From Trichaptum fuscoviolaceum (taxonomy: Eukaryota; Basidiomycota; Agaricomycetes; Hymenochaetales; Trichaptaceae), in contig CAJSYZ010000011.1 of NCBI GenBank assembly GCA_910574455.1, forward strand, positions 310,001-374,000: a stretch of DNA of 64,000 nucleotides, given 5' to 3'. The notes under the pieces are model-generated. The model made no database searches. It saw only the letters and a program-made list of their open reading frames with translations, and was not told the DNA's origin. Positions 1 through 64,000 of this stretch are shown one piece after another (the first letter of the stretch is position 1; every line of letters starts with the position of its first letter). Position numbers and translations under genes: made by a program.

Positions 1-1844
1 ATGAAGGAAGGATGTAGCATGAGGATCACTGTGCTTCACTGTCTGGCACTCACCTGTCCACCTGGTTTTGTCTCGTTGTTCTTATCCTCAAGTACGGAAA
101 GGGATTGGTTAGTAGATTGGAAAAGGTAGGAATGATATGACGTCGCTTACCGTTGAAACCTGCGACCCGGAGAGAGTGTCGCGCAGCAACTTCCTTTTCT
201 TTGAGTTCAAGTTGCTGCTACCTCCATCCTGTTCATTACACGACAGTTGGCAGAAAAATAATAACGAAGGGATATGATCAAACGGTCATGGGGTAACTGA
301 CGTGAATCGAACAGTAATAAGTCACACTCACACTAGCTTGAGCCGGCCTTGTCAGCCTCCTCGGATCGCTTTCGCCCTACAAGCAAGGTATTCAGACTGC
401 ATCTGCCATTCTAATGTTCCGTCAACTCACAATATTTGTGTCCGAATCGACAAAATGTGCTGTCTGTTGCACGCTGATTGAGCTATTCTTTACACCATGA
501 TAGCTTGCGAGGGTTATTGTTTCTCCTTCATCCTCCCAAGGACTTAAGTTTTCATTGTCTTGCAATGAGATGCTGTGTCTAGTGTAGCTTGGCGTCAGCG
601 AAGCTCATAATATGGTAACAAAGACGAGAGTGTCATCGTTGTAGGTAGAAGGAAATTTGATCCCGTTGTCGGAGCGTCATGATCCGCTTCTTTAGCATGA
701 ACATTAGTAATCTAGTTGCCAGTGGATCAAACTATGAGCTTTAGCTGAGTCTAAATCAAGCTTCACACTTACCATTACATCGTGCATTCCAGAAATTGAT
801 CCCGTACGCATTGCAAGATTTCAAATTTAAACTCACAAATTGATCCCTCTCGAGTCTATCCCAGCCACCTCAAGTCCTCCATCCTCTTCACCAATGAAAG
901 TGGATTCATCTGTGTTGCGAAGCGCCCTGGCAGGTCGCTTTGTCTTGTCGTCCCGCTTTGACGTAGCGGGCGAGTCTATTATATCCGTTTCTTCACCAGA
1001 AAGGCTCTCGTTCTGTCCGGCAGGTGCGTGAAAGAAAATGTTGCTTGGAGTGGCGGCAGATCTCGACGTCTTTGCGGTCTGCACACGGGTGCGAAATGGA
1101 AGTTCACCTTTGGGATCTTCTTTCCTAGCCTTTTTTGCAGGCTTTCTGTTTGACGCATCCGTACTCGCCGCTTCATATTGTGAGTCAAAGTAGTCAACCT
1201 CCAAGCTTCGAAAACATCTGAAAATGTATAGGCAGTATAACTCACCAATGTCTAAGTCTTCGTTGTATTCAACTTCACAACCCGACACGTCTTTAACATC
1301 GTTCTTCGAGCCTGCTTACGCCAGTTCAAAGCTATGTAATTACTGATCTGAGGTTGAAGACTTACTACTAGCTTCGCCCTTCGGCTTCCTACATCCACGT
1401 TTTCCAGCGAGTTTAGGCACTGTTGAGCCCATCTGGGTGCGTGTCTCAAGAGCCTTCGACAAATTGTTTTCAATTTCTACGGTCTCTAGCATCGCTGCTT
1501 CTTGGTTTTCTGCTGCAGTCACCTTCTTTCGTACCTTGTCAGCTGCCTCTTGTTCTTTTGCTGCCCGTTTCTGCTCCGCAGCGAGTTTTTTCCTCTCTTT
1601 CGCGACCGCGACTTGCTGGGCCGCAGCTCTGCGGAAAGCTGCCCGTTCTTCCTTCTGTTTTTTCCTTCTCCTCCTTCTCCTTCAATGCCTCATCCCGCCT
1701 CGCTGCCTGCTGTACTTTCCTTTTGTCTTTTTCTTCCTTCTCCCGCAATATCTCCTCCTTTGTTCGTCTTGTTCTGAGTTGGTCAACTACTGCTCCGGGG
1801 TGCTGGTTATTGTTCTTAGCCCTCGTCTGTCTTCGAGTTGACAT
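1..1844 (-). CDS. coiled-coil accessory gene of the Plavaka element, N-terminal part (E1 copy, runs off the window)
   Basis: The gene starts at 1844 on the minus strand and leaves the window at position 1. Its first exon encodes a basic N-terminus with HPGAVVDQLRTRRT, followed by a long Lys/Glu/Ala-rich coiled coil. Later exons are Ser/Thr/Lys-rich. An indel relative to E2 near 1665 shifts the frame inside the coiled coil, so this copy may be damaged. The function is unknown. It is divergent from the transposase with about 235 bp between starts, and the same pairing occurs in E2, so it is a resident accessory gene and not a chance neighbour. Its E2 homologue continues through many short exons to an acidic C-terminus. 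Confidence 0.7.
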
Positions 1845-2078
1845 TTTGTGCAGTGTTTTGAGACTTGGGTGATAATAAGATGGATCGAAGGTGCTAGTTC
1901 AAGATCAGGGAGGCGGGGGCGTCTATCTTAGACAAGTTGAAAATTTACGCCCACTACTAGTACTACCGTGACTACTCTATGACTAATTTTAACTCAGGTT
2001 CAAGTTCACTCACTGCCAGCCTGCTGGCACTCAGCTGTGAGTCCCAATCATCGACATGTACTACTGAAGGTTACATTG
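1845..2078. promoter_or_regulatory. divergent promoter between accessory gene and transposase (E1)
   Basis: This is the only space between two divergent starts. It aligns well with 30828-31099 in E2. The differences are almost entirely gains or losses of XY-C-rc-G-XY words: TACTAGTA at 1955-1962 is present here only, while E2 has extra TC, CA and TT words. No TATA box stands out. Confidence 0.55.
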
Positions 2079-5000
2079 ATGCCAGCGACACGGAAAAAGC
2101 ACGATCCCCTTCATTTTCCACCAACTATTCGATGCACCTTGCCCAGCTGTAGTAGGACGTTCAAGAGTCAATCTGGAAGAGCAAGACATGAATATTCAGC
2201 TCATCCGATGTCATCCGTGGCAAGATCTACTGCCTGTGGTCACGACTACTATGATCCTTCACCTATTCGACCCACACGAGCTCCAACTCCTCAACCTCTA
2301 CCGAGGTCGTCCGAACTTCCAACAGAGGGTCATTTTGAGAGCGGCCCTGACTCCTACGATTACGATATTTCCATGCTTACACAGGATATCTCGATGCTCA
2401 GTATAGGCCGAGACGAGCTGCTTCAAGACCTAGACAGACCTGATTCTCTGTCCCATTCTGGCACCGGAAGTGACAGTGGCCGTAGTGCATCCTCTGAAGA
2501 TTTGGACTTCGACGTTGGAGATCATGAGGAGAGTGATGGTGACCTAAAGGTGTATCACAGATATATGAATGGTGCGCACCAAGTATATTGTCCTCGGTTT
2601 GATAGCACTCTGATGAAAAACATCGTGCAGCCACCCCGTGTGATGCGGAAGGAAACAACTTAGAAAACGACGAACCACCTGTTCCGCGAAATGAACCTGC
2701 ACCAAATGACTGGTCTCCCTATTCGTGCCGAGCAGATTTTGAGCTCGCAGACTTTCTTTATCGCGATGAGCAAATGTCTGCTGGTAATATAACAAAGCTT
2801 CTCGGAATCATGAAGGCTTACCAGCGAATTCAGTCTGTGAAGAACGCGAAATCTGGCGGATATTCTGAGTTGGACGTAACTAAGCCCGACGATGACTCAG
2901 ATCTGGATCCCACTAGTACGCTACTCGATGGAGACGCACAAAAGTTGTACAATGTCATTGACGCTACGAGAGTTGGTGATGTGCCTTGGAAATCCTTTAG
3001 TAACTTCTACACGGACAACAATGGCCAAAAAGCGACAGACGAGAACACCGAGTCATGGAAGAGGAAAGGATATGATGTATGGTATCGGGATCCCTTGGAA
3101 GTGATCCGAAATTTGGTGGATAATACGGCTTTAGAAGGCGAATTCGACTATGTCCCATTTCGTGAATATCAGCCAAAGGAGGAATCTGATGACATCAATG
3201 ACAAAGAACGAGTGTTCAGAAATTACATGTCCGGAAATTTTGCTTGGGAACAGGCTGTAGGTCATGACTCATGAACTCGCAGGAAACATACTGATTATCC
3301 TTGACTTAGAATAAGATCTACGCCGAAGATAAAGCAGTCCATGGATCTATGTTCGTTCCGGTGATCTTGGGGAGCGACAAGACAACAGTTTCCGTTGGAA
3401 CTGGCAACAACGAATATTATCCGTTATATCTCTCAATAGGAAATGTATCAAACAAGGCCCGGCGGTCCCAAAAGTTGAATACAGTCCAGCTTGTAGCATT
3501 TTTAGCAATACCAAAGAGTGTGTGTCAAAAACTGAGCCATTCAATTGTGTTTTGACGCTTTTTTGCAGCTGAGCGACAGTACGAAAAGTCAGATGACTTC
3601 CGTCGCTTTAGACATCAAATTTTTCATTCATCTATATCGAGAATCTTGAGTTCACTGAAGACCGCCATGTCCATAAACAATGAACAGACCATTCTCCGGT
3701 GCCCTGATGGTCACTTGCGTAGGTCGGTTCTCGGACTCGGCTCGTATATAGCCGATTATCCGGAACAGGTGAGTCTATGCGCAATATGCACTGGATGGTG
3801 CTGCAAGTAAGTACCATCCTTTCCAAAATCGCATAGGAGTCTGAGGAAATGGCTTACGGTGGCTATATAGATGCACAGCTCCCCACAAGGACCTAGATAA
3901 TCCGGAGTTTGCATCAAATCCTCGAACAAAAGAGCTACACGAACGATTGATAGAGCAGGTAAATGACAACAACTTAACCAGAGCAACAATTCGCAAAGAG
4001 TATGGGTTCCACCAAGATATCGTGGTATGTGCTCCAAATTCTCCATTGGATGCGCTTCTAAGAACTATGTTTTCCCGTAGCCCTTCACCAATGACTTTCC
4101 GCGCGCAGATATATGCGATCTCATTTCTCCGGACCTATTGCACCAAATCATCAAAGGTGTTTTCAAGGATCATCTTGTCGAGTGGATATGCCAGAGCTTG
4201 ACCACAACAGAGCTGGATATTGTGGATAAAAGGTGCCATTCTCAAACAATTTGTATAATATGAATACTATCGCTGACCTCCGCGTAGAATCAGAGTCGCT
4301 GCTCCTTTTCCTGGACTACGTAGATTCCCCGAAGGCCGAGGCTTCAAGCAATGGACAGGCAATGATTCAAAGGCACTTATGAAAGTATGTGATTTTTCCT
4401 TCTTGTTCGAGGCGGTCGTTTGCTGATAGTAGTCGATGTAAACCGCTTAGGTGTATCTTCCGGCTATTGTGGGCATTGTGCAGGATGATATAATTCATGC
4501 ATTGAGTGCATTTCTCGACTTCTGTTATCTTGTGCGTCGGTACACGATTACAGCCTCAACACTTGATCAGATCAAAGCCTCTCTGGATTGCTTTCATCAA
4601 TATCGGCAAATATTCATAGCTATGGGTATCCGGGACAACTTCTCACTACCACGACAGCATGCCATGGTCCACTATCCTACAATGATTCCTCTGTTCGCTG
4701 CACCGAGTGGACTATGTTCATCGATCACAGAGAATAAGCACATTTACGCGGTCAAGGAAACATGGCGACGCTCAAACAAAAATGATCCCTTGGGTCAGAT
4801 GATCACAGCAAACCAACGACTCAGTAAACTTATTGCATCAAGGGCAGACTTCAAAAGGCGTGGAATGCTGGATGATACGTTAGCCGAGGCTTCGTGGAGA
4901 GCTTTGCGAGATGTTTTGCGCAAGAATATGTCGTCAGAGTCAGAGTCGGATGACGCTGAGAGGGACCCTGATGCCAGTGGGGGAGAGCAGATGCAACAAC

Positions 5001-6083
5001 GTGACGTATTAGTAGTAGGTGAAGCTGATGATACAGATGACTTCTTCGATGCCATTGTGGGTATTCAAGAGCTCAACGAAATTGCAGATTTGGACGATTC
5101 CGAAAGTTTAATAGATGAGCCACAGCGTGGTGCGGTTCATGGCGTAGGAAATGCTGAACGCCAGCTCCGCTTGGGTGGCAAGAATGACCCTTTGAGCTTT
5201 ACGTTAATGGCTTCAAAAAAACGTTAGTGAAACATCCTTTTGGTGCTGCAAATCCAACTTGTTTATTGTTATCCTTGCAGAGTCCAGTAAAGTGTACCCT
5301 AAACAGCTCGATGCTCTCGCGGCAATAGAAGGCTATCCAGAACTTCGACAACTCCGACAACTCATCAAGAAACACTTATTCAACAAGTACGAAAGTTGTA
5401 ACACCAACTCAAAGTGTTCTGCTACTACTAGTAGTAGCAGGCAAGCCAAATTAAACTACAACGGATTTGAACACTATAAACTGGATATTAGCAATGACTT
5501 TTCAATTTTCCATTCAGCCACCGCGTTCTTTGCGTATCGTGGTGAATCGATCCCTATAGAACAAGCAATGAGGGAGGTGATCAGGTCCAGTCCCTCTTGG
5601 CGCGGAAAACCTCGACGAGATGCAGTTCTTGTCCGAGGTGGTTCCCGCAAACAGGGGTTCGCAGGAATGAGAGTTGCCAGGGTTATACTTTTTTTCTCAT
5701 TCACCGTTAAAGTGGAACGTCAGGAATGCGCTCTCGTCCAGTTTTTCAAGCGTGTTGGAGAATCGCCCGACCCGAAAACAAGAATGTGGATAGTTGAACC
5801 AGCATATGAGTTGGAGAGCTCTACCGCCTGTGTCGGACGCTGTCCCGGAGTGAATGACAGTGGCAGACATCACTATCACCGTGACTGCAAGGCTCCGAAG
5901 CTGTCTGTGATAGATATAGGGGACATCTTTCGTTTAGCTCACCTCCTTGGGGTCCCGAAGGGTGACGAATCTCCTCCGAAGTCATTGACACCTGAGGAAT
6001 CCCTGGACTTTTACGATAGATTCTACGTTAACAGATTTGCTGACATGCACATGCACGAAACATTGTACGAAACTAGACAATGA
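2079..6083 (+). CDS. Plavaka-family transposase (E1 copy)
   Basis: A multi-exon transposase of the fungal Plavaka group (CMC/CACTA-like DDE superfamily). Translation starts at the ATG of MPATRKK; a C2H2-like zinc finger follows (CTLPSC...H-x5-H). Next comes the conserved core: WSPYSCRADFELADFLY, then FVPVILGSDKTTVSVGTGNN with the likely first catalytic Asp. After that are CPDGHLRRSVLGLGSYIADYPEQ split by an intron, a Cys-rich ICTGWCC stretch, FSLPRQHAMVHY and GLCSSITENKHIYAVKE. The C-terminal domain ends in YVNRFADMHMHET. Inferred introns include 2571-about 2624, one after EQA near 3257, one at the IPK codons near 3517, one at 3770-3870, one near 4025-4078, one near 4235-4288 and one at about 5222-5280. 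No stop interrupts the spliced frame I traced, so it may be active. The start is fixed by the aligned E2 copy. Confidence 0.88.
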
Positions 6084-6532
6084 TTACTACTAACTTGAAG
6101 TAAAGCTTTTCAATTAGCATACACAACCTTGAATGTACTATATTGAAACTTACGAGTGAGGACTCGGATATGGCAATGAAACAAAAGGATGTACTAGACG
6201 AAACAGACCTTAGTACTACGTATGTAACGTAGTACTACACTGGCATTGCAGCATTGGCTCTTAAAGACTAGTAGTACCATGACACTGTTTTAACTTCAAC
6301 TTCAAGTTATGGTGTTCTTGGCTTGCTTTCAGGTTGTACAGTATACTACTAGTGGTACACTGGCAATGATATCATGGCAGTAGTATTTCATTCAGGTTGG
6401 TCAAGGCAATGTTATTATCAGCAAATCACAAAGCGACACAAGGAAAAACTGTAGACACTAGCATAGCGCAAAGATTACATGGGAACTCCAAGTCATAGCT
6501 TCACCTCCGAGTCCAGCTCTGCCCCGCAACAG
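6084..6532. other. convergent intergenic region, no gene seen
   Basis: This lies between the 3' ends of the transposase and accessory gene B. It contains scattered ACT/AGT runs (for example near 6215-6275 and 6340-6360) and CTTGAA words. I see no ORF or structured RNA that I would call. Confidence 0.5.
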
Positions 6533-8977
6533 CTAGTTGTGGTGACTGTTTCTATTAGAAGTCCTTTCTTCCTGCTTGCCATTAGGAAGATACATCGGTG
6601 TGCAAATATCCTCAGGCTTTCGGTTCATCACTTCGCTTAGATAATCGCGATACTGTGAGTTGTAGATCTCTCCCGGTGATAAACTCGTCCTGGCAGTCGA
6701 AGCCCCGGCCGTAACCCTCGCTCCGGGTGGTATATCGTTACATATCTCGAGCACCGTTGCTATCAGTTGGTCTTGAAATTTATCATGGGGGTACTATTGC
6801 GGGTATCCTTCAAGTCTACGTAAGCCGTGAACTTCTCAATAGAGTCAAGGACTGCGTCAGTCCTCTCCTCCCGAGCATGTATGATATCGTTCATTACGTG
6901 GCGGATTGAACGGGATAGCTGGTTACCCATGACTGTGTAGAAAAGATCCTCGTTGAGGACTATTTGCAACCACCTCTTGACGACTTTAAAACCATGTATC
7001 AACTCCCGCTGAATCCTTTCCAAACGACGGACATCTCGTAAGTCGAGTTTCTTCAAAAAATCAGCGAAAGAGGGATTAGGCCCCAAGGCCTTCAAGGTCC
7101 TTTTCATGTCTTCAACAGATTTGATGCGAAGGTCGTCGGCCATAACAAAGTTCGGCACTTCTTCACCGTTATGGAGTGCGCGGACCTTGTCCCAAAGTGT
7201 GAGCGCCAGTCTCCGTCCAATCTCCGAGTCTTTAAAGACTAGATGCTTGTGAACGTCAGGCTGAGGGCGTACCTGAGGCAATCCCCCAAACAGTTGGACC
7301 GCAGGCGTTACGAAAGTTCCTGGGTTGTCCACCGTCATTGAGTAGAGCCTTTCCTGTGCATTGGGCTTGAAATTAAACTGAAGAGCTGCCGATTGTTGGA
7401 GGAGTTTGTCAATTTCTACGATGAAATCGTAAAGTGCGTTGTAATGGAGCTGGAAATATGGTAGAAAGAACCGGAAAGCAGTTAATTTGTTCACCTGAGA
7501 TGCGTCGAATGGCAGGTTTTGACGTTGCCGAGCTTCACGATTCAGGATAAATTTGACATGTGGTGGGTCTTTTACCACAGTGTAGGATTTTTCTTCCGGT
7601 TCCGGGGAACGACTCGAAGTCGGAGGTGGCAAGTAAACTCGAAGGTATCGTTTAAAGTGTTCATGCATGACGACAGACAATGTCTTAAAGTTGGCGGCAA
7701 AGTAATTGAGAGTGCCGGGAACAGAATTATGTGAGTACTTGGTTCTCAGTATCTCCTCGCCAGTGAAATCAAGGACAATTGCACAGCCTTCCCGGAGGTA
7801 GGTCAGTAGATTATCTGTAAGCTTCCTCATTCTTACAGCGTCGCCTGCTTGCCGTGACTAACAAGGGTATGTTTTTAGATGTCACTCTTTTTAGAAATGT
7901 GATCATGTTACTTACCCCAGACATTTTGTCTTCCACGAGATCGATTGACGCTGATACGTCATTTAAAGTATCTGCAACGTTCTTCTGGACTCCTTCCATC
8001 ACGGCAAACCTCTTCTCCAAATCCGTAACTCGAGCCCTCAATTCATTGGAATCCTTTTTATGAAATTCCTCCCATTTTTTCAGCTTCTTGGTCAAGTCCT
8101 GCAGCTGCTTGACTCCTGCATTTGGATCGTAAAGGGCGCGAGCTCAGAGGGGGTTGGCGAATGAGATGAACTCTTTGGGATCAAGTGAGCCGATTCGATG
8201 TTTTCTGTGCCAGTGAAGGGTTAGCTTTGGACACAGACTATGATAGAAAAGGGAGGAAGAATGCGTTACCTTCGCTTGGATCGACGTTATCAACTTGAGA
8301 ATCCGATACTCCAATTGCCGGCGAACTGCGCATAGATTTTTGGGCAGCAGACACTTTAGAACGCAAATCCGACAACATGTCATTTGGAGTACTACGTGGG
8401 CTGCGGCTGCCAGTGAATCGAGGCCGAGGAGTAGGTGAAGGGGTTGAAGGGTTGAGGACGCTAATTTGAAGAACCCTCTTATTTGGAATAGTCGGATCGT
8501 TCTGCGCGACGTCCCGCCTCTGAGTCTCCCCTCGATAGCCATTGGCGCCAGAGTATGTTCCAAGTTCTTCACGCGGGTTATAACTGTTGTGTACGTGTTG
8601 TGCGCTGCCTCTATAGTCGCGGTACGCCTCCACAGGGTATGAAGAGCTGGTCCTGTCTCGGTATTGCCCACTGGCGCTGGTACTAGTACGGCTCGGCCCC
8701 GGAGTGCTCGTGGGACTGTACTCATGATCGTTCCTCCTCCGTTTATTACTTCTGTCCTTCCTGTGCCAGCCTGAGTGTTTCTGTGAATACGGCGGTGAAT
8801 AGTGACGTTCATGGGCATTCCGATTACCACTGGAACGACGCTCGACAGAAACGCGCTCCGACTCGGATTCGGATTCTTCGAAATAATTGTCAGAACCGGC
8901 GAGGGGTCCGACTCAAACTCAGGCTCACCTTCACTTTTCGGGCTGCGCTGACGCTTGTTACTATTGTATGATGGCAT
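6533..8977 (-). CDS. Plavaka-element accessory gene B (E1 copy), unknown function
   Basis: Reading leftwards from MPSYNSNKRQRS at 8977, the protein has a charged, Ser/Pro-rich N-terminus. A coiled coil follows (VKQLQDLTKKLKKWEEF, about 8095-7811). A helical domain contains LTAFRFFLPYFQLHYNAL, and the C-terminus is helical (ERIQRELIHGFKVVKRWL). A frame break near 6794-6819 is bridged if a 26-nt GT-AG segment is removed; the frame then runs to the stop at 6533. E2 has a gene in the equivalent position (24271-26287) with the same order of parts, including a matching hydrophobic LAFRFFVPLL segment, but it is too diverged to align by eye throughout. I do not recognise a known domain. Exon boundaries between 8977 and 8095 are uncertain. 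Confidence 0.6.
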
Positions 8978-9004
8978 AACTGCAAACTGGAGGAGTCTCA
9001 GGCT

Positions 9005-10205
9005 TGCCGTGAGTAGTGATGCCGAATATTAGTAATAGTAGTGGTAGTGGTAGTAGTGGTACTACCTCACGCGGAAGTTCGGTAGCGAGTAGTAGTACTA
9101 AGTAGTAGTAGCGAACTTGAAGCGGATCAGGCTCACGCTCGGCCTGAGGCTGTAGCCTGAGTGGTTCTAATCGGTAGAGCTACTACTAGTAGTACTAGAA
9201 GTACAAGCTTGAAGATCTCAGTTAGTGGATGAAGTAGATCTAGAAGGCTGAAAGCTCACTCACCACCAGTGCCAGCAGTCTACAAGTAGGATGAAATTCA
9301 GGTGGACTTCAGGATGAGAGGGCTTCAAGCTGTTGATGTGTGAAGTTGAAGAACAAGCCTAAGTACTAGACTCGGGCACGACACGTCGCTCAGGATCACT
9401 GGGGTGCAACGTCAAGTTGTGGGCATGGGGTACTCAGGCTACTAAATTCGGAACTTGAACTTGAACTAGTTGAAAGTCCGACGGCTCGGAGTGGAAACGC
9501 TACTAGTACCTCAGGCTGCCACGTACTACTGCCGTGACTCCCGGGCCGTCGGAGTCGGACATCATGATCACTGCAACTCACTGGCAGGCTGAATGATCCG
9601 ACTCGGAGTTGGCATTCAAGTTGCGCGCGCCGACAACTTCAACTTGAAATTGAACTTGAATGCCACTGGCATGCCAGTGATGTTTGGCGACTACTACTAC
9701 CTACTATTAGTACTCACTGGCAGGGTACCGTACTACTACTAGCCACTGGCAGCTGAATGATCCAGTCTTAAGCAGCTTAAGCTTCCAGTTCTGTCCACTC
9801 AGACTGGCAAGTTGTCACAATCTCAACTTTACTACTACTACTAGTAGTAGTATACGGTTCGAGTCCGAGTTCGAGTCCGAGTCCGAGTCCGAGTCCGAGC
9901 CTGATTTCAAGGCCGGACACCGGACCTGAGTGAGCTTGAAGGCTGGCCCAGCACTGGTGAGTGGCACTCAGGCTGTCCGGCCGGCGTGACGGCGGTACTT
10001 CAAGTTCAAGTTCAAGTTCAAGTTCAAGTTCAAGTTGGAGCCTCAGGCTGAGTCGGAGTCGGGTCAGAGTTCAACTTGAAGTTGACTCGTCATCAATTCA
10101 AGAACTTCAAGTTGAAGCTGAGCCGAGCCTCCTCCGACTTGGACTCGGAGTCTCACAGGCTTCAAGTTACTACTGCTCTACGCCCCGACTCGTGAATGCC
10201 ACCAA
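9005..10205. repeat. word-rich island made of XY-C-rc(XY)-G-XY motifs (E1)
   Basis: A non-coding stretch densely packed with short words: TTCAAG tandem units at about 9999-10035, TCCGAG tandem units at about 9873-9899, (ACT/AGT) runs, CACTGGCA, CTCAGGCT, ATCATGAT at 9561-9568 and CCCGGGCC at 9540-9547. It begins just upstream of gene B. The equivalent place in E2 (22245-24065, upstream of its gene B) holds a similar island. Short open frames here are low-complexity translations and were not called as genes. Confidence 0.75.
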
Positions 10206-10949
10206 CTAGAACTGAGGTTACTACTACAAGAGGTAGTAGGCCTTTCGTTTCACTGTTGAGTTTGCTGTGTATACTCTCTTTTTTCTTCCGCCGCGCATCT
10301 GCCGACTCACTCACTCTGCCTGTCTCAGCATGCTCAAATTGTTCTATCGGTTTCAACGCCTTGCGCAGCTCACGTACGTCTGCACGATACTTTTGTAGCT
10401 CCCTGTGGGTCGACGCGTTTCGGCTCGTTCGGCACGGCTCGTATGGAAACCCAGGGGGTAGGAGTTCGACCGCTTTTGCAGAGGACACGAAACCACTACC
10501 GTCTACGCAATTTACTGCGCCCACAGCAGGTGGTTGCCCCAAGTCTTGCCCCAGGCTTCTCTCGCAAATTTATCCCGACGCGTATCCCCTTACCGACTAA
10601 AGCAATGGCGAGCACACTGGGGCGCATGCGCACACGTCTACCTCCACAGTTGACAACACGAATTCCTTCAGCAATTGGTGATGGTAGAGTGATTACATCC
10701 GTCACCATATATCATGAGTGAACCTTCTCCAATGGATAGAGCTACGCCAGAGAGCTCATCATCAGTGGTGGCTGATGAGTGCAGGACGTTAAAACTGGTT
10801 GCTGCACTTGCATCCGAGGTCTGTTCCTCCCAGGTTTTGAATCGCGAGACGCATCACCGACGTTTGGAATGTGCAAAGAGGCAAGTTACTGAACCGGCGC
10901 TCACAGGCACCAGGAGGGGATGTGCGTGCGGTAATCAGTGAGCGAAAGC
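10206..10949. other. E1 cargo region with no confident gene
   Basis: Short open frames exist on both strands, including a minus-strand charged stretch ELQKYRADVRELRKALKPIE between about 10430 and 10330. None has a convincing start, splice structure or family match. It may be the remains of accessory gene A, which E1 otherwise lacks, but I cannot show this. Confidence 0.35.
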
Positions 10950-11320
10950 TTCTACTGTACTTCTCGAGTAAGTTGTTCTTTTATTTTTTGAATCATAATA
11001 CTCACAGGCTTCTTCAGCTTTGGAGCATCGGCACGGGGAATGTCCATACGTTCTCCGAGAAAATCTGCATAAGATTTACGCCGAAAATTGTATTGTCTTT
11101 TTTCTTGGGCGTGGGGGATTGGACACATCCGTTCGCGTATGGAATCTGCAAATGGGTATGATTCTCTTCACATTCATTCATCCCCGACTCGTCAGTGACA
11201 ACTTTTCAGTACGACTCCGACTTTCTTGTCACCGGAAGGAACGATGGCCGCGTCAGCTTCTTCTCGTTTCATCGTTCCTCTTTTCCTCGACCATCTCCAG
11301 CTCAACAATAAGCGGCCACA
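10950..11320 (+). pseudogene. WD40-repeat gene remnant (F-box/WD40-like)
   Basis: Around 11110-11155 the translation reads GGLDTSVRVWNLQMG, a classic WD40 blade ending. A likely intron follows (gtatgattctc to about 11208). The frame resumes with YDSDFLVTGRNDGRVSFFSF, which resembles the next blade. Only about one and a half blades are visible, and the surrounding frames are broken. Cdc4/Met30-type F-box proteins have similar blades, but the fragment is too short to decide. From 11320 to 12307 I see only an unrecognised open frame (11448-11990). Confidence 0.45.
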
Positions 11321-12307
11321 GGACTTGCACTGAGCAGTCAGGGGACGAGTCTCTATCCCTACCGTCTACACTCACCTCAGGGATCCCTGCTCAATCGACA
11401 TCTAAGCCTAAGTTCGCCTGGCCTGAGCGGCGAAAGAGCCCAAAAACATGGGAAGGATGCTGAACAGCTACGCTCTCTCAACACATACAACAGTGAGGAG
11501 AGAAAAGTTGCGAAGTTGCGCGGTCGGATTCGTATATACGGGGCTATGTATCACCGGGCAGTTTGATGCGTCCCAATATTCCGCTTGCATGCACAAAGTC
11601 CACCAGACGTCGACAAAGCGACTCACAACTCAATTTGCAAATGCAGCGAAGGGAATGATTATAACTGCATTTTCGACATCATCCAAGTTGTCGTGTCCCC
11701 ATTCCTTGCCAAACACCTCTGCCCCGCCACCATTGCCGCCTAAATGGAGAACGCTCGGTTTCAATGTGCAGTATGAGTTGATCGTCGGCCGACAGCGCGA
11801 TTCCCTCAGCTCCGAGGACGAGAAACGCGCCTTCATGCAAATTACTCCTTCCGAAGCGGGTTGGGATGCATTCAAGTTCAAGTTGGCCCATTTCCCATTT
11901 TGGCACGGTTCTAGTTCAAGTTTCGGGTTGAGTACAGGGATGACTGGTTGTATGGTGAGTTACTCGTGGCTTTCTTCGAAATCCTTCTAGAGCTGATGGA
12001 GCAGCTTCTTGTGCAGTGGGTTGTATCCTCCCGACTTCTTCGGAGTTAACATGACTCATTTTCTTGTTCGTTTGTGCTTAAAATGAAAAGAAGCCTTATA
12101 ATCAAGTCATCCGGAAGAAATCATTTGTTATCTCCTATCAGTTCAACTTGCGGTTTATCCAAGTCATAGTACAAAGCACTAATAGCTCCCTCTCTCTTTC
12201 TAGAAGAATGGGAAATCAGAAAACTGACTTCAACTACTTTGTATAAGTGTGAAGTGGGAGCGGGTATCGTCCCCCAAGATCATCATCCAGCCATTCCACC
12301 GTGAATC

Positions 12308-13350
12308 ATGTTCTCAAATCTTCGTACTATCCTTCTCATCCTCCTCTCCCTTGATTACGCACGCCTGCACCTCCGCACCGTCCTCCGCTTTCAGCTCGTT
12401 CAACGGTGGACAGCAAGGGCTCAAACGAAGGTACTTGTTTCATTCATATCAAGATCTGTACACTGACTTGTTGCTAGATACACAAGAAACTGCAAACGTT
12501 TCTTGATTTCCTCGGGGTACCACCAACACCTCTCTCCGAATTAGATGAATATAGGCCCCATAATATAGTTCCGATACAGTGTTGCACGGGCTTGGATGTG
12601 GACAACGCAATGACTGCAATATATGCATCTTTGCCCACAGGTACCAGCTAGGAGATTTGTCTCGATCGACATCGAGTGGGCAAGTGGCGGAAAAGGGTCC
12701 AATCATCGCGTAGACCTCATCCAACTCGCAGTTCAAAACCAGGTTTATCTGGTCAGGACGCATACTCTTACTGACCTTCCTCCTACGTTGGCGCAACTCC
12801 TTGGGGATGGTACAGTCATGAAAGTTTCAGCTGGAATCAACGGTATGAATAACTTATCTTTTCTCCTGCGAGGTGGCCAACCAGAAGAAATGGCAGGTGA
12901 CGCAGTGCGTATAAAGCGCAAGTTTTGCACCTCTGTGCGCTCCTGTGTCGATCTGACAGATTGGGCGCGCGTTGTCTACCCGGAAGTCTGGCCCAAAAAC
13001 CCGACCTGGTCCCAACTGCTCTTAAACCCTCGTCTCTGGTTCCAGCATCCGACTCCGACTGTCAAGCTCGAAAAAATAGTGGGAGAAGTATTGAGGCTGA
13101 ACGTCAAGAAGAGTAGTGAGGTCACGATGAGTGACTGGGCAGCTAACGAGCTATCAGCGGCACAAATACAATGTAAGTTATCATTTTGTTGCTCAAGATC
13201 AACCATCTTCAAGTTCTCACTTGCATGATCTGCTGTACTGGAATACTAGATGCTGCCATTGATGTTCACAGCACGTTTGCTGTAGCTTTGGCCCTGAGCC
13301 AAAGCCACCCACCCTTACCGGATAAGTACATCAAGAACTTCGAGGCTTGA
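12308..13350 (+). CDS. DEDD-type 3'-5' exonuclease (RNase H-like, Werner-exonuclease-like)
   Basis: A complete four-exon model: 12308-12430, 12478-12597, 12641-13172 and 13250-13350, all joining in phase to give 291 residues. The N-terminus is hydrophobic (MFSNLRTILLILLSL), a possible signal anchor. The exonuclease fold shows motif I as FVSIDIEWA (Asp91 and Glu93). Motif III is YAAIDVHSTFAVALAL, the Y-x3-D form of DEDDy enzymes, split by the last intron. Motif II (GINGMNNLSFLL) has Asn where Asp is normal, so activity is uncertain. The donor of intron 2 (GTGGAC) is weak. Substrate is unknown; the family degrades DNA or RNA from 3' ends. It lies inside E1 between a WD40 remnant and a glucan synthase fragment, with a clean reading frame unlike both. 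Confidence 0.7.
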
Positions 13351-13645
13351 TCTAGTAGGCTGAGGCCCACCAGTAGCAGGTTTGACCAAATGTGCTTGAG
13401 TTATCGAGTAAATTGTTGTGCACATGCTCTTGTCTTTCAAAGTTGCCAGGAGATTCATGTTTAAAATTTATTATTGAATTGCTTTTTTTTCCCGAATGAT
13501 CACCGTAGTCTGAGGTATCAAAGTGGTTTGGAAGATGTCGCCAATGGTGTCTGTCTGCTGTGAGCAACCCAATGGATTAAATAGTTTTCAACACCACTAT
13601 TAGTGCTTTTTCAAGACACTTCAAAGTTTTCAAGACAATTCAATA

Positions 13646-13701
13646 TAACGCCCGGACGGGCCAGCTTTTTGCTGGCGATACCCGAACACCTCTGGGCGTT
13701 A
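13646..13701. repeat. 56-bp double-hairpin motif, copy 1
   Basis: An outer stem TAACGCCC...GGGCGTTA encloses an inner stem GCCAGC-loop-GCTGGC. A second copy of exactly the same length lies at 57554-57609 with the same architecture and extensive identity. It may be the end of an unidentified mobile element or a structured RNA. The rest of 13351-13827 shows no gene. Confidence 0.6.
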
Positions 13702-13827
13702 AGTAATCACAAGCTACATATTTTACCCAAGCGGTGCAGCAACTATTTTTCCTCCAATAGTAGTACTATGTCAGTGGCAGATTTGTCTGCTCTGATGCAT
13801 TATATTATTTTATTATATAGTCCAGTG

Positions 13828-16720: not shown

Positions 16721-16789
16721 TGGAGGAAGAGGCAATTGGCATTGCCGCACTTCAAGTTTTCTCAACTGGTTTCCTAATTCAAGTTTAGA

Positions 16790-17015
16790 TGTAACAAAAA
16801 TCGTAAAAATTTTCCAAGTCCCATGTTACTTGAGCACTGAAATCCTGACTTGCATTCTGATGTACTGAGAGATGGCTTGCATCCTGAAACACTCTTTATT
16901 TCAGTGAGTTAAGGCAATCAGTGTATTTTCAGACGAAGTAGCGACCCTTCAGACAGGTGCCAGCCAAATCAGGACGCGTCAGTCGCCGTAAGCAGAAAGT
17001 AGTTTCCCTGATGTA
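16790..17015. repeat. E1 terminal and subterminal sequence
   Basis: The last bases read CGCCGTAAGCAGAAAGTAG then TTTCCCTGATGTA at 17003-17015. The reverse complement matches the E2 left end (TACATCAGGGAAACT, then GCTTACGGCGACTG). Inboard repeats such as GCACTGAA and CCTGAAACACT resemble the E2 right subterminal region. The element proper may begin at C, with TA as duplicated target. Confidence 0.75.
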
Positions 17016-19025: not shown

Positions 19026-19240
19026 TACATCAGGGAAACTTCCGTTTGCTTACGGCGACTGGCGCGTCCTGGCGCGTCCTGAAGCTTCCTTAAATGGGAT
19101 GAAGCGATGCCATGCCTACCTGAAGCGTTGCCTGGCTGCCTGATGGCCTTAGAACACGGTGTTTCAGGACGAAATCAGTGCATAAGGAGGGAAGTTGTAC
19201 ATCAGGCGCCAAGCCAGGCTCAAGTGAGATTTAAGCACGA
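19026..19240. repeat. E2 left terminal and subterminal repeats
   Basis: TACATCAGGG is followed by GCTTACGGCGACTG, a doubled GGCGCGTCCT unit (about 19061-19080) and repeated CCTGAAGC / GCCTGATG words. A second internal TACATCAGG lies at about 19198. Such subterminal repeats are typical transposase binding regions in CACTA-like elements. Confidence 0.65.
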
Positions 19241-19355
19241 GCGTGCACAGTTTAAGTAAAATGGCAAGTACAACTTTGAAGATAAGTTCATCAGCAGATT
19301 CAGTATAGAAGTCGAAGCCGCCACTCATTACTGCCAACTACTACTAATCTCCAAA

Positions 19356-19777
19356 ATGTCAAGTTCTGATCTCGGGGATACTCAGGCAGAAGAATTTGCG
19401 GACTTCAACTTCACTGACAGGAGATATCACGATGCATACCAGTGTATCTCAGTTAATAAATATTATATCGAAATCTCTGCAGACAGCGCATACAAACACA
19501 GGAACAAATACTCGCAAATCGCCAGGAAAAATGACAGGATGGAGGACGCCAAGTTATTAGAGTCGACAGACTGTAATTCCAAACATGCAAATCCCCACTA
19601 CTTCTTTGAGTTCCGTACTAAGCCACTAGTATACGATGAGTTTAGCTTCGTTAGCCCTGCTTTCATGACGGTCAGATCGAGTTTGCTGTGGGCTTCGAGA
19701 TGGATGAGGGATTGAGGGCACTCAATCTCAATGTTCGTGGAGTACTCGCGCCCATAGGGACGACTATTCCCCATTAA
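19356..19777 (+). CDS. small Plavaka-element gene, unknown function
   Basis: It starts with MSSSDLGDTQAEEFADF in a good fungal start context (CCAAAATGTC). The first frame runs to about 19628. Removing a 26-nt GT-AG segment (19629-19654) joins it to FHDGQIEFAVGFEMDEGLRA and the stop TAA at 19775-19777, which overlaps the stop of gene A on the other strand. If the segment is not an intron, the gene is frameshifted. No family was recognised. Confidence 0.5.
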
Positions 19778-22121: not shown

Positions 22122-22244
22122 GGTCGTAGTTTACGAACAGTCGTACGGGAGTCAGGGGTATAGCAGTTGAGACAGTATGCAGAGTCAGCGTCACCGCCAC
22201 TGGCAGGATGTTGAAGATGAAAGAGAAACAAAGAGTGCGTACGT

Positions 22245-24065: not shown

Positions 24066-24270
24066 TGAATCTCCTTCCCTCCTCATACAAGGACCGCAAA
24101 AATCGATCATCAGCGTGCATTATCGATTGGCGTGGTCACGACCAACTTGCCTTTGTATATCATTAAGTCCGAATCCCCGCGCACACTATCAGAAGGAATA
24201 TTCGAGCTCATATTTTGCACCCACTCTGCTGCACCCACTCTGCCACCCGTTTTATCAGTCATCTCCGAAG

Positions 24271-35689: not shown

Positions 35690-35966
35690 TTGAGCACTGC
35701 AATTCGTCTTACAACACTTGTCTACTGCTGTAATTAAAGGATGATACACTGGAGCACTGGGGTGCTGAATGCCTGAAACACTTAGAGCACTGATTCAGCC
35801 ATCTTTCCTTATTTAAGCCAGCCCGCACTTATTTCAGCCAACTTGTCCTGAATAATGGGAGGACATGCATGAATAAGTGAAGCTTGTCTTATTTAAGACT
35901 TCAGTCTCTCAGGACGTTTAAGTAACACTTAAGTCAGTTTCAGCAGAAAGTAGTTTTCCTGATGTA
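35690..35966. repeat. E2 right terminal and subterminal repeats
   Basis: Repeated GAGCACTG, CCTGAAACACTT, CTTATTTAAG and TTAAGTAACACTTAAG words precede the terminus TTTTCCTGATGTA. The block matches the first ~270 bases of E3 almost base for base. Confidence 0.8.
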
Positions 35967-59280: not shown

Positions 59281-59640
59281 TACATCAGGGAAACTACTTT
59301 CTGCTGAAAGTGACTTAAGTGTTACTTAAACGTCCTGAGAGACTGAAGTCTTAAATAAGGCAAGCTTCACTTATTCATGCATGTCCTCCCATTATTCAGG
59401 ACAAGTTGGCTGAAATAAGTGCGGGCTGGCTTAAATAAGGAAAGATGGCTGAATCAGTGCTCTAAGTGTTTCAGGCATTCAGCACCCCAGTGCTCCAGTG
59501 TATCATCCTTTAATTACAGCAGTAGACAAGTGTTGTAAGACAAATTGCAGTGCTCAAGAGTCTAAGTGCATAAGAACGATCCAAGTATTTCATTGCATCA
59601 GAAATATATAAGACAACATTATTTAGCTATCAGTGCCTCA
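59281..59640. repeat. E3 terminal and subterminal repeats
   Basis: The same block as 35690-35966, inverted: TACATCAGGG, then TTAAGTGTTACTTAA and GAGCACTG-type repeats. Confidence 0.8.
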
Positions 59641-59892
59641 GTGTTCAAGTACATCAGTCATCTACGCAAGACTAAGCATAGCAGTCGCTATGAAGGGATC
59701 CCCCACGACATTACCGTGAACCTCTGCCGTGACGGGCAGTGGCAGGTCACACTTCGCTGCCGTACCTTCAATTCTGCATGTTCTTTGGCGGACCAGTAGA
59801 AACGAAGGCTGCTCTGCGAGTCGATGGTAATATAATATTGAGCGCACGGACAGAAAACGAAAAGAAGAGGCTCACCAGTGATCGATTTGCCC

Positions 59893-60047
59893 TTAGAAGT
59901 CTACGCAGTCCGTAGCCGAATCCCATTTTGAAGCGTCGTCCTCCTCATGATCACCATCTCCACCTAAATCCTTGTCCTCGCCCTCGCCCTCGCCTTCGCC
60001 CTCGTCCTCGTCCTCGTCCTCGCCCTCGTCCTCGCCCTCGCCCTCGT

Positions 60048-60082
<35 letters not shown>

Positions 60083-60105
60083 CCCTCGTCCTCAATCTTC
60101 TCAAC

Positions 60106-60139
<34 letters not shown>

Positions 60140-63100
60140 AATCTTCTCAACGCCCTCGTCCCCGCTCTCGCTCAGGTCGTCGTCGCCCTTAGCATTAGCA
60201 TGTTCGTCCTCTGCATCACCTTCCATCTCGCTTCTATGTTCAGCCCCCTCACGCTCTTCGCCCTTATCGTCGGTTCCGTCTTCCCAATTATCAGCGCCTT
60301 CGTCATACGCTTTCTCGCAGGTCGAATCTGCATCTACACCGTCAAAATACAAGGAAAAGTCCTGCCAGTGATACCCGATCCAACAAGTTCGGTGTTCTTT
60401 CTCGTGTCGATATCTGTACTGGCATCGTAAGCTAGGAGGCGGGATCGAACCTTTTCCCAGTTTGATTCAGTGAAGAAAGAGGGATTCGACAACAAGTTAA
60501 CATAGTCGTCCGTATGAGGCTGCCACAGAGCGCTAGTGAAATACCACTCAGCGCCGCCAAGTTCTTCTTTGATATTTTGCAACCGAGCCACCTGTTTATC
60601 AATGGCAACCTTGACCTATCCATGAGAAGATCAGCGGATAAGGACAATATAAGTACTGAAAAAATAGATACCGCTGTTGCCGCAAGGGCGAGGGCACCGA
60701 TAGGCTTTCCTATGGTGTTTCTGTCCAGTATTTTATGCCGACCCATGGCCAAGACAATGTGTACGGACAACACTGAGACCACAAGGTCAGAGCAGAACAG
60801 TCCTTGCTTCTGTACATTTAGGGTCAATGCATGGACACAAAACGTGACAATAAACACTCTTTTACTTACCCTCTCCATACTATACCAGCTTTCCCATAGA
60901 AACGGTTCGGCTTTCTTCTTGTCAACTAGCGTCTGCAACGTCTTCACAATTGCTTCGTTTTGCATTGACTTTAATTGTTCGCCGCTGATAAAACTGGCAA
61001 CTGATTGCTCAGCTTTCTCAAAAAGTTTCTTGCGCCAGCTATCAGAGCATCTCTGGGCCGCCTGAAATACGAGGATTGCATCTCAATTTGGTAAAGGTAA
61101 CTTGAGAATAAGTAAAAATGACTCAACTAGAGAACAGATATCAGCGAACTGAGTTTCGTAACTAAGTTCCACAGAATCAAACACTTTCCCCCACAGTGAG
61201 CTGATGAGCTTATTGTCCGGGGTTTGCCATTGTGTGACGGATTTTCCAACTGCGCGAAATAGTGAAGGTAATAGAATATGAGTCCAACCTGCCTGAGTAC
61301 CGGGAGGGAGACACTGGTTCGTCGCCCTTTTCCTGCCTGGCACGCGAGATCCTTCCCTTCCTTCATTTCGATCCTTGTCCTCAAGTCCCACTGATGTCTG
61401 CATATAAGTAAATCAACAAAATATGTCATAGAAATGAATTTGATTCGACAAACTGAGCTAGTAGTCCGAGAGACTTTGCGATGACCTTGATAAGCCCCAG
61501 TCACTAACACTTCGGGTCCGGGGGTGCAGGATGCACTCTTCATTGCAAGCGACGGTGCCCGAGGTGCTAACGACATGTTTCGACCACCAGACTATTAAGA
61601 AAAGAAGGTGAATGCTCACATTTAGAGTGTATCAATCGACTCTCACTTACTTCATTATCAGCCACAAGCGACTGCCTCTTGCGATTAGAGGTAGCGGATC
61701 CAATCTCCGGCTGCAACACGTCAGAAAGCTGTTATCCAAGGCAAGTGAGCAGATCGAAAAGAAGCACTTACCGTCGTATCGGCCTCAGGCCGATAAGGAA
61801 TATCAGAGGGGTTCCTCTTCTTACTCAAGTCCTTTCCGCCTGATCAGATACGAACTTAAAATGCCGGTTACCATAGAATTGACACTTACTGTGGCACCGG
61901 CCGGTGTGTCCATGTCAGTCAACAATGACTTCTTGATCTTGACAGTTTTATTAGCCAATTGAAATGGCTGAAAATAAGTAAACATAAAATGAAGGAATTC
62001 ATTGCACATCAAGGTAGAAGAATTACCACATTAACCTGAGAGTCGGTGTCTGGTGGCGACTTCCTCTTTCCGTTCTTTGTGACTGTGATTTCCTATTCAT
62101 ATGCACCCATTAGCGATCGACTCAAAGTGAAGAAGGAAACGAATAGTTGCCACAGGAGAGCACCGGAAGTGAGCCTAGGGTGCATCGACACTCACACATA
62201 CCTGTACACGGGGTTCCAAGGCTAGTGATTGCACCTTACAACCATAAATAAGGGGGGAACGAGAGAAGTTGAAATAAGATAGACTTACCGGTGCGCTAAG
62301 CTGCGAATTAGCAGTTCTCTTGTTTGCATCCTATCAAAATACCAATTCAGTAAGCAATGAAGGAAGGATGTACCATGAAGATCACTGTCTGGTACTCACC
62401 TGTCCACCTGGTTTTATCTTGTGGTTCTTATCCTCGAGTACGGGAAGGGATTGCTCAGTAGATTGAAAAATGTAAATGATATGACGTCGCTTACCGTTGA
62501 AACCTGCGACCCGGAAAGAGTGTCATGCAATAACTTCCTTTTCTTCGAGTTGACGTTGCTGCTACCTCCATCCTGTTCATGACACGGCAGTTGGCAGATA
62601 AATAATAACGAAGGAATATGAACAAACAGTCATGGAGTAACTGACATGAATCGAACAGTAATCAGTCGGACTCACACAAGCTTGAGCCGGCCTTGTTAGC
62701 CTCTTCGGATCGCTTCCACCCTATAAACAAGTTATTCAGACTGCACTTGCCATTCTAATGCTCCATCAACTCACTGCATTTGATTCCGAATCGACAAGAT
62801 GTGCCTTCTGTTGTACGCTGATTGTGCTATTTTTTACACCATGATAGCTTGTAAGGGTTATTGTTTCTCCTTCATCCTCCCAGGGACTTAAGTTTTCATC
62901 ATCTGGCAATGGGATGGTGTGTCTGGTGTAGCTTTGCGTCAGCAAGACTCATAATACAGTGGTAGCAAAGACAAGAGCGTCCGAGTCAATGTTGCAGGTG
63001 AAGGACTTCCAAGTTGGGTCTCGGCCCGGGAGTGTCACGCCGGTCACTGGCACTGCCAGTGCATCCGCTGCCAGTGGCAGGCTCATTAGTCGTAATCTAG

Positions 63101-64000
63101 TACTAGTCGGGATGATTTTTAATAATTGAGTCTAAATCAAGCTTCGCACTCACTATTACATCGACTTGACAGTACCAGATACTGATTCAGACGCAATGCA
63201 AGATTCAAACTTCAAACTCACAAATTGATCCTTTCTGAGACTGGCAACTCAAGACCTCCACCCTCTTCACCGATGAAAGTGGAATCATCTGTGTTGCGAA
63301 GCGCCCTGACAGGGCGTTTTGTCTTGTCGTTCCGCCTTGACGTAGCGGGCGAGTCTATTATGTCCGTTTCTTCACCAGAAAGACTCTCGTTCGGTCCTGC
63401 AGGAGCGTGAAAGAATGCGTCGCTGGGAGTGGCGGCAGACCTGGACATCTTTGCGGTCTGCACACGTGTGCGAAATGGAAGTTCACCTTTGGAATCTTCC
63501 TTCCTAGCCTTTTTTGCAGGCTTCCTGTTTGGCTCATCCATACTCGCTGCTTCGCATGAACGTGAGTCACAGTGTTCAACCTCCAAGCTTTGAGATCATC
63601 TGAAAATGTATAGGCAATGTTACTCACGAATATCCAAGTCTTCGTTGTGTCCATCTTCACAACCCGATACGTCTTTAACATCGTTCTTCGAGCCTGTTTA
63701 TGCTAGTTCAAATCTGTGTCATCACTGATCTAAAGTTGAAGACTTACTACTAGCTTCGCCTTTTGGCTTTCTACGTCCACGTTTGCCAGTGAGTTTGGGC
63801 ACTGTTGAGCCCATCTGGGTGCGTGTCTCAAGAGCCTTCGACAAGTTGTTTTCAAGCTCTACGGTCTCTAGCATCGCTGCTTCTTGGTTCTCTGCTGCAG
63901 TCACCTTCTTGCGAACCTTGTCAGCTGCCTCTTGTTCTTTTGCTGCCCGTTTTTGCTCCGCAGCGAGTTTTTTCCTCTCTTTCGCAACCGCGACTTGCTG
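59893..64000 (-). pseudogene. coiled-coil accessory gene of the Plavaka element (E3 copy), premature stop in the acidic tail
   Basis: Homologous to 31100-35355, read leftwards from beyond the window end. The coiled coil (about 63730-64000), the short exons and the C-terminal domain (WYSMERV, IGKPIGALALAATAV, ALWQPHTDDYVNLL) are kept. The base whose loss shifts the E2 frame is still present here. A repeat rearrangement introduces TGA at 60101-60103, cutting off the last part of the acidic tail; the loss of a tail may be tolerated. Its first exon and promoter lie outside the window. Confidence 0.6.
59965..60150 (-). repeat. expanded and rearranged acidic-tail hexamer repeat (E3)
   Basis: GAGGGC/GAGGAC units on the minus strand, longer than in E2. 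A duplicated GTTGAGAAGATTGAGG segment lies in the middle and creates a frame change and a stop. Confidence 0.8.

What the first reader, a model, noticed from the sequence alone, without database searches (positions are those of the whole stretch)
1..64000. A rewriting rule for 6-bp insertions: XY becomes XY-C-rc(XY)-G-XY
The commonest short words here (TTCAAGTT, TCCGAGTC, CACTGGCA, CTCAGGCT, TACTAGTA, ACCGTGAC, ATCATGAT, CCCGGGCC and complements) all fit one formula: a dinucleotide, C, its reverse complement, G, the dinucleotide again. Aligned copies show them as exact 6-bp presence/absence differences. (1) E1 TT at 2076-2077 against E2 AACTTGAA at 30829-30836. (2) E2 GA at 32322-32323 against E3 TCCGAGTC at 62980-62987. 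(3) E3 AA at 63011-63012 against E2 TTCAAGTT at 32291-32298. (4) E1 866-867 against E2 TGCCAGTG at 32079-32086. (5) E1 TT at 4039-4040 against E2 28840-28847. (6) TACTAGTA at E1 1955-1962 against TA near E2 30987. (7) Removing one CA word and two TC words from E2 30913-30943 gives the E1 sequence near 2003-2018 exactly. Different XY in every case, one formula. I know of no description of this.
Basis: seen in the sequence. Interest (0 to 1): 0.97.

Follow-up and report, generated by a model that had tools for sequence, protein, structure and literature searches.

The report
Mirror-patterned scars of departed jumping genes
This fungal genome is strewn with short DNA words built on one mirror-image formula, and these are likely the scars left when jumping genes of the Plavaka family leave a site, which would show how the cut ends are sealed.

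Summary
The rule is real. XY-C-rc(XY)-G-XY words occur 174 times in the window against 16-18 expected from Markov models; four hot words are 2 to 11 times commoner genome-wide than the same words read backwards; 17 of 24 clean 6-bp indel contexts between repeat copies fit strictly. Words private to single copies show insertion. The likely cause lies in the window itself. E1-E3 are Plavaka transposons (PF18759 found in E1) that begin CATCAGG, end CCTGATG and duplicate 2 bp (TA, TA, GA, AA, TT read on both sides). A filled site thus reads XY-C...G-XY. All 19 E-type insertion dinucleotides fall in the set favoured by the words, and insertions and isolated words both prefer C just before XY. Best reading: Plavaka excision footprints, made by hairpin-type ends that keep the element's terminal C/G and anneal through the duplication. 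The model gives the formula for all 16 XY, and 3-bp scars only for self-complementary XY; such scars are seen at TA. The footprint link is likely; the hairpin is inferred. Ten paper searches turned up no description.

The parts
1..17013 (+). E1, a Plavaka element of about 20,060 bp (its first 3,047 bp lie left of the window); ends ...CCCTGATG, followed by TSD TA at 17014-17015
   Evidence: 5' end TTACCTA|CATCAGGG at C11:306954; 3' end in window
2774..4201 (+). Plavaka transposase pieces of E1 (ORFs 2774-3274, 3310-3555, 3556-3810, and 3845-4201 below the cut-off), probably exons
   Evidence: PF18759 E=4.7e-23, 3.9e-27, 9.1e-23 and 0.018, together covering profile positions 3-289 of 325
19028..35964 (-). 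E2, read as one Plavaka element (16,937 bp) with TSD TA at both sides (19026-19027 and 35965-35966); that the two ends belong together is inferred from orientation, spacing and the matching TA
   Evidence: CATCAGG at both ends with TA outside; 84% identical to E1 over 6 kb
59283..64000 (+). E3, start of a Plavaka element; TA precedes CATCAGGG; its 3' end is outside the window
   Evidence: 94% identical to E2 over 4 kb
8304..8305 (+). Empty site CG in E1; the C2 copy of E1 holds here a 2,640-bp element CATCACAGAATCCGG...CCGGATTCTGTGATG between two CG, an exact filled/empty pair with a 2-bp duplication
2076..2077 (+). Empty site TT in E1; E2 carries AACTTGAA at 30829-30836; six 96%-identical E1 copies carry TTCAAGTT here
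30829..30836 (-). Word in E2 matching the E1 empty site
32322..32323 (+). Empty site GA in E2; E3 carries TCCGAGTC at 62980-62987
62980..62987 (+). Word TCCGAGTC in E3
63011..63012 (+). Empty site in E3; E2 carries TTCAAGTT at 32291-32298
32291..32298 (+). Word TTCAAGTT in E2
866..867 (+). Empty site CA in E1; E2 carries TGCCAGTG at 32079-32086
717..724 (+). TGCCAGTG in E1, absent from six 96%-identical copies
1955..1962 (+). TACTAGTA present in L009-L011, TA only in six near-identical copies (L012-L017); start of a stretch (1955-2077) that varies between copies by words
8860..10170 (+). Word-dense part of E1, including (TTCAAG)n near 10000; nearly identical in 20 other copies where sampled (9430-9990)
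22000..24070 (+). Word-dense part of E2; word CTCAGGCT at 22680 is missing in copy L044
23082..23530 (+). MITE (CAGCATATTCAG...CTGAATATGCTG between TA) whose right repeat carries words at 23494 and 23509 that its left repeat and the repeats at other places listed lack

Best explanation
The six-base insertions are likely excision footprints of Plavaka-type DNA transposons, whose filled site reads XY-C...G-XY and whose departure would leave XY-C-rc(XY)-G-XY. Shown: Plavaka elements in this genome begin with C, end with G and duplicate 2 bp; their XY choice and the base before it match those of the words. Inferred: the transposase cuts one base inside each end, so each flank keeps the element's terminal C on its 3' strand; that 3' end is joined to the opposite strand at the edge of the element, making a hairpin XY-C-rc(XY), as relatives of RAG1 do on flanking DNA; the hairpin is opened two bases past the C; the two resulting 3' tails, XY-C-rc(XY) and rc(XY)-C-XY, pair through their last two bases, which are always complementary because both come from the same duplication; filling in and sealing gives the formula. 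When XY is its own reverse complement the tails can also pair one step deeper, which gives XY-C-XY or XY-G-XY, a 3-bp scar.
For: PF18759 in E1. Ends CATCAGG...CCTGATG and 2-bp duplications at the 5 E-type elements read at both ends: TA, TA, GA, AA, TT. A second family with CATCA..TGATG ends sits in one E1 copy with an exact 2-bp duplication of CG, and the empty site is letter for letter in E1. All 19 E-type insertion dinucleotides (TT 7, TA 5, CA 3, AA 3, GA 1; 14 of them read on one side only) lie in the nine-dinucleotide set that holds 161 of 174 words and 61% of window dinucleotides, P=8e-5; this set was chosen from the words. The word spectrum fits the 19 better than window composition does (lnL -30.3 vs -42.6). 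C precedes XY in 12 of 19 insertions (P=3e-4) and in 119 of 250 flanks of isolated words (48% vs 25% expected, P=2e-14). The inner C/G is not copied from the target: both inner bases mirror the flanks in only 29 of 174 words. Insertion polarity: words in one or four of the 30 E1 copies fetched, and in one MITE repeat but not in the others listed. The model yields the formula word for all 16 XY; it is the only product for ten, CC and GG add a 7-base product, and the four self-complementary XY add 3-bp scars. After words are collapsed, XY-S-rc(XY) 5-mers are near background for the 12 other XY (1.05-1.07), while TA-S-TA stays 2.0-2.6-fold up (TA-A-TA and TA-T-TA 1.3-1.5-fold). Plavaka shares motifs with RAG1 (PMC12730594, passages); hAT transposases cap flanking DNA with hairpins, which ties them to RAG1/2 (PMC4763223, passages); Ac/Ds scars are palindromes of the flank (PMC4561436, passages).
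Against: No site was seen filled in one copy and scarred in another. Of eight insertions in E1 copies whose junction letters I read, four are hAT-like (about 8 bp), three LTR-like (about 5 bp) and one is C...G with 2 bp, duplicating CG, which is outside the favoured XY set. In 21 copies of a word-dense stretch no new word has appeared; one copy lacks one tandem TCCGAG unit, one has +TA, the rest are single-base changes, so the words there are old. Words are far denser in E1 and E2 (65 and 76 in 17 kb each) than in the rest of the window (23 in 23 kb), which random insertion does not predict. One exact terminus pattern of the E-type occurs 340 times against tens of thousands of words, so many scars would be copies inside elements or come from lost or diverged families. 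AG/CT words (26) have no match among the 19 insertions. After collapsing all C/G words, C/C (62) and G/G (45) stay above the other shapes (13-31); G/C (28) does not. AT, CG and GC, self-complementary but rarely used, show no clear 3-bp excess. The hairpin itself is inferred.
Confidence: 0.77

Rival explanations
1. A direct mutational process makes the words without a transposon ever lodging at the site: an enzyme (Plavaka transposase in abortive target joining, or another nuclease with a 2-nt stagger) cuts at C-XY, one C is added at each 3' end, and the same inverted-tail joining follows.
For: Only one C...G element with a 2-bp duplication among the eight insertions read in E1 copies, against several word events in the same family; explains the same formula and the same target preference if the transposase does it.
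Against: The invariant C/G equals the element's end letters; an untemplated addition would need its own reason for C. Word and insertion preferences agree in two features, which a transposase-free process would not share.
Confidence: 0.14
2. Scars of another C...G element family with a 2-bp duplication (another PlavakaB or CMCT lineage, or a MITE), not of the E-type Plavaka.
For: One E-type terminus pattern remains 340 times; AG/CT words have no counterpart among the 19 E-type sites; a second CATCA..TGATG family exists here, as does a C...G MITE with TA.
Against: The E-type dinucleotide spectrum and preceding C already match the words. The second family's one site, CG, is a rare XY among words.
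Confidence: 0.2
3. The words are binding sites or other conserved signals that selection keeps, and the 6-bp differences are losses.
For: Words are denser outside the transposase: 3 in 2037-6083 of E1, 50 in 6084-10300.
Against: Many different XY share one formula; some words are in one or few copies while the others are empty; the empty state is exactly XY.
Confidence: 0.03
4. Replication slippage or microsatellite growth in hexamer arrays such as (TTCAAG)n and (TCCGAG)n.
For: Tandem arrays exist, and one copy lacks one TCCGAG unit.
Against: 125 of 174 words have no other word within 14 bp; insertions arise at a bare XY; slippage does not make an inverted dinucleotide.
Confidence: 0.02

Closest known systems
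Plavaka DNA transposons, PlavakaB lineage (CMCT clade with EnSpm, Transib and RAG1; PMC12730594, passages read)
   Same: PF18759 transposase, termini CATCA..TGATG, 2-bp duplications
   Different: The passages read describe no excision scar; 'footprint' and 'hairpin' occur 0 times in that paper's main text
Ac/Ds (hAT) excision footprints (PMC4561436, passages) and V(D)J P nucleotides (recalled)
   Same: Palindromic copies of the flank, explained by hairpin-capped flanks
   Different: There the scars are flank sequence rather than element sequence (passage) and vary (recalled); here one exact 6-bp product stands out and one element base is kept at each end
Tc1/mariner and Stowaway footprints (PMC4561436, passages)
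   Same: Element end bases stay between two target copies; 2-bp duplication
   Different: Mariner's target is TA (recalled) and no inverted target copy is described in the passages; here XY varies and is copied in inverse
mPing/Harbinger excision (PMC4561436, passages)
   Same: Joining guided by microhomology of the target duplication
   Different: mPing is generally repaired precisely; here the ends would join through an inverted copy and leave 6 bp

Membership tests
Plavaka transposons (E1-E3 as members) | PF18759 transposase domain | tested here: met
   E1 ORFs E=4.7e-23, 3.9e-27, 9.1e-23; E2 and E3 only by DNA similarity
Plavaka transposons (E1-E3 as members) | PlavakaB termini CATCA..TGATG | tested here: met
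   CATCAGG...CCTGATG at both ends of E1, E2 and three further copies; E3 at its 5' end only
Plavaka transposons (E1-E3 as members) | 2- or 3-bp target duplication | tested here: met
   2 bp at the 5 E-type elements read at both ends
Plavaka transposons (E1-E3 as members) | DDE catalytic triad and the CxxC / H(3-4)H motifs | not tested
   exons were not assembled
Excision footprint of such an element (the words) | Two copies of the target dinucleotide kept, bare XY at the empty site | tested here: met
   17 of 24 clean 6-bp indel contexts
Excision footprint of such an element (the words) | Target choice equals that of present insertions | tested here: met
   dinucleotide spectrum and preceding C in 19 E-type sites; AG/CT not seen there; one site of a second family duplicates CG, outside the set
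Excision footprint of such an element (the words) | Same site filled in one genome and scarred in another | not testable with these tools
   no second strain held; among paralogous copies one filled/empty pair was found but no filled/scarred pair
Hairpin-type (RAG/hAT-like) excision | Palindromic copies of flanking bases in the scar | tested here: met
   C/G spacers: rc shape 174, reversed 16, same 44 (21 of them shared with rc), complement 77 (59 of them shared with rc)
Hairpin-type (RAG/hAT-like) excision | Covalent hairpin intermediate | not testable with these tools
   needs biochemistry
Microsatellite slippage | Growth within an existing tandem array | tested here: not met
   insertions at bare XY; 125 of 174 words isolated
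Tc1/mariner footprint | TA target only (recalled) | tested here: not met
   only 15 of 174 words have XY=TA

The most novel reading that the evidence does not exclude
Plavaka, a fungal relative of RAG1, leaves an almost deterministic scar: flank hairpins that keep one element base are opened at a fixed distance and rejoined through the inverted target copy, so each excision writes XY-C-rc(XY)-G-XY. Thousands of such scars, nested, iterated and multiplied with the elements, then build much of the noncoding DNA of those elements, seed hexamer arrays, and add two in-frame codons when they land in genes.
Probability: 0.6. Interest if true: 0.88.

Novelty: new variant of a known kind. Interest (0 to 1): 0.83.

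Why it matters
If true, a transposon's excision history can be read from one genome as a dictionary of 8-letter words, with the target dinucleotide and nesting order kept. It would be the first footprint for Plavaka that these searches turned up, and a testable clue to the chemistry of a RAG1-related transposase. It also names a mutational process that adds 6 bp at a time, which indel models of mushroom genomes should expect.

Tried and rejected
Slippage: rejected, because insertions arise at a bare XY. A general S/S rule: C/C, G/G and G/C shapes are also raised (79, 66, 57), but they fall when C/G words are collapsed (62, 45, 28), and putting the words back at random gives 65.5, 49.0 and 37.4; C/C and G/G stay above the other shapes, partly through TA trinucleotide arrays. 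An inverted copy of a longer target (C-XY-G): rejected, since the inner bases mirror the flanks in 29 of 174 words only. XY-S-rc(XY) as a general 3-bp rule: rejected for the 12 XY that are not self-complementary. A search for small C...G inverted-repeat elements with a 2-bp duplication in the window gave mostly nested registers of long inverted repeats and word pairs; apart from the MITE at 23082 and the stretch 17016-18975 I took up none of the list. Insertions inside E1 copies were examined to catch filled sites: four hAT-like, three LTR-like, one C...G with 2 bp; one further stretch (L082) was fetched from the wrong side of its insertion and told nothing. Sampling a word-dense stretch in 20 further copies for fresh events found none. 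Plavaka with 'footprint' gave 1 paper (PMC11244446, on giant viruses; listing and start of abstract only) and Plavaka with 'excision' gave 2. I saw passages of PMC12730594, PMC9674265, PMC8290104, PMC4763223 and PMC4561436; none of those passages describes this scar. Most subscription journals are not in the library.
Full report
What was checked. The window is C11:310001-374000 of a 59.1-Mb genome in 12 contigs. Named homologues of an E1 protein come from mushroom-forming fungi such as Hygrophoropsis, Hydnomerulius and Pisolithus, so the host is most likely an agaricomycete; this is inferred.

The word excess is real. Of the 16 shapes XY-a-rc(XY)-b-XY, C/G stands at 174, C/C 79, G/G 66, G/C 57, the others 12-30. 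Expected for C/G: 15.5 (first-order Markov) or 18.0 (third-order). Other arm or spacer lengths show no comparable peak in the list. Genome-wide counts of four hot words exceed their backward readings 2.2- to 10.8-fold; the controls differ in CpG content, so the ratios are rough. The fifth, ATCATGAT, is below its control, AT being a rarely used XY. In 39 kb of twelve other loci, C/G words number 35 against 8-23 for the other 15 shapes.

They are insertions at a bare XY. Between repeat copies, 17 of 24 clean 6-bp indel contexts fit strictly, 3 more contain the word beside a substitution, and 4 contexts at 3 sites do not fit; 4-, 5-, 7- and 8-bp indels number 4, 0, 1 and 2. Gaps without 8 of 10 matching, ungapped bases on both sides were dropped before this count, and copy L041 was left out because its flanks are not homologous. 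Among the 30 E1 copies fetched (identity 96-100%), a TGCCAGTG at 735 is in L024 alone and an AACTTGAA at 1934 in four copies; an AGCCTGAG is in L034 alone of the 29 copies that could print. In the MITE at 23082-23530 the right repeat carries AACTTGAA and AGCCTGAG, which the left repeat and the repeats at the other places listed lack. The near-identical copies L039, L040, L042-L044 differ by one CTCAGGCT.

The link to Plavaka. E1 encodes PF18759 in pieces. E2 reads CTA|CATCAGG...CCTGATG|TAG, E3 starts CTA|CATCAGG, E1 reads CTA|CATCAGG...CCTGATG|TAC. A 2025 paper gives PlavakaB termini CATCA..TGATG with 2- or 3-bp duplications (PMC12730594, passages). I fetched 18 predicted 5' ends; 13 held the terminus and 5 did not. 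Three further elements were read at both ends: GA|C...G|GA, AA|C...G|AA and TT|C...G|TT. A second family, with ends CATCACAGAATCCGG...CCGGATTCTGTGATG and 2,640 bp long, sits inside one E1 copy between two CG; the window's E1 holds the matching empty site at 8304-8305 letter for letter over 50 bases. So a filled site reads XY-C...G-XY. The 19 E-type dinucleotides are TT 7, TA 5, CA 3, AA 3, GA 1; all fall within the nine that the words favour (P=8e-5); the CG of the second family does not. The base before XY is C in 12 of 19; around 125 isolated words it is C in 119 of 250 flanks, against 25% expected. Two features of target choice thus agree between present insertions and words.

The mechanism. 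If each flank end keeps the element's terminal C and gains an inverted copy of XY, the two 3' tails are XY-C-rc(XY) and rc(XY)-C-XY; their last two bases always pair, and filling in gives the formula. Enumerating this gives the word for all 16 XY, as the only product for ten; the four self-complementary XY also give XY-C-XY and XY-G-XY, and CC and GG give one extra 7-base product. The sequence agrees in part: after collapsing words, TA-S-TA stays 2.0-2.6-fold above expectation (TA-A-TA and TA-T-TA 1.3-1.5-fold), while the 12 non-self-complementary XY show 1.05-1.07; AT, CG and GC, rarely used, show no clear excess. Of the ten distinct 3-bp indels between the fetched copies, eight can be read as TA-S-TA (seven) or CG-G-CG (one) and two cannot; in the more diverged within-window comparisons two of seven can (read by eye). 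A hairpin is the simplest way to obtain the inverted copy: hAT transposases cap flanking DNA with hairpins, which ties them to RAG1/2 (PMC4763223, passages), Plavaka shares motifs with RAG1, and Ac/Ds scars are flank palindromes (PMC4561436, passages). The one-base offset and the opening two bases past the C are inferred from the product alone.

What does not fit yet. No filled-versus-scarred pair was found. Of eight insertions read in E1 copies, four are hAT-like, three LTR-like and one is C...G with 2 bp. A word-dense stretch of E1 shows no fresh word over the 20 further copies sampled. E1 and E2 carry several-fold more words per kb than the rest of the window, perhaps because these elements insert into each other or because their noncoding parts are long-lived targets; this is open. 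One exact terminus pattern of the E-type occurs 340 times, so many scars must be copies multiplied with elements or come from past or diverged relatives. A transposon-free version of the same end chemistry cannot be excluded.

Verdict. The best reading is a footprint of PlavakaB-type excision, which I found in no paper within the searches listed.

Noticed in passing
window near 9868-9905 and 9999-10036; 99 pattern hits genome-wide, most of them (TTCAAG)n: Hexamer arrays (TTCAAG)n and (TCCGAG)n sit inside word-dense Plavaka DNA; they may begin as nested scars and then slip (L098 lacks one TCCGAG unit).
   Followed up: partly
L076/L077 (C2:5899510-5902149): A 2,640-bp element with CATCA..TGATG ends and a CG duplication lies in an E1 copy; its coding content was not examined.
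   Followed up: partly
window 17016-18975: A stretch between E1 and E2 bounded by TA|CAACACTGGCAG...CTGCCAGTGTTG|TA looks like another C...G element with a TA duplication.
   Followed up: no
L070-L075 (C6, C11 and C2 copies of E1) and L079 (C2): Four hAT-like insertions with about 8-bp duplications lie in E1 copies, three of them in the word-dense part.
   Followed up: partly
L069 (C2:653840-654640): A solo LTR of about 577 bp with 5-bp duplication GCATT sits in an E1 copy.
   Followed up: yes
window 38584-45970: Four related stretches of about 0.7-1.1 kb in alternating orientation, one pair 98.5% identical and inverted; nature not examined.
   Followed up: no
window 23082-23530; L045-L063: A MITE family with long terminal repeats (TACAGCATATTCAGAAAAGGATGACAGTGCG) at many places of the genome.
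   Followed up: partly
whole genome: The words of AC/GT, CC/GG, CG, GC and TC/GA contain a CpG; loss by methylation-driven mutation could hide part of the XY spectrum. Not tested.
   Followed up: no
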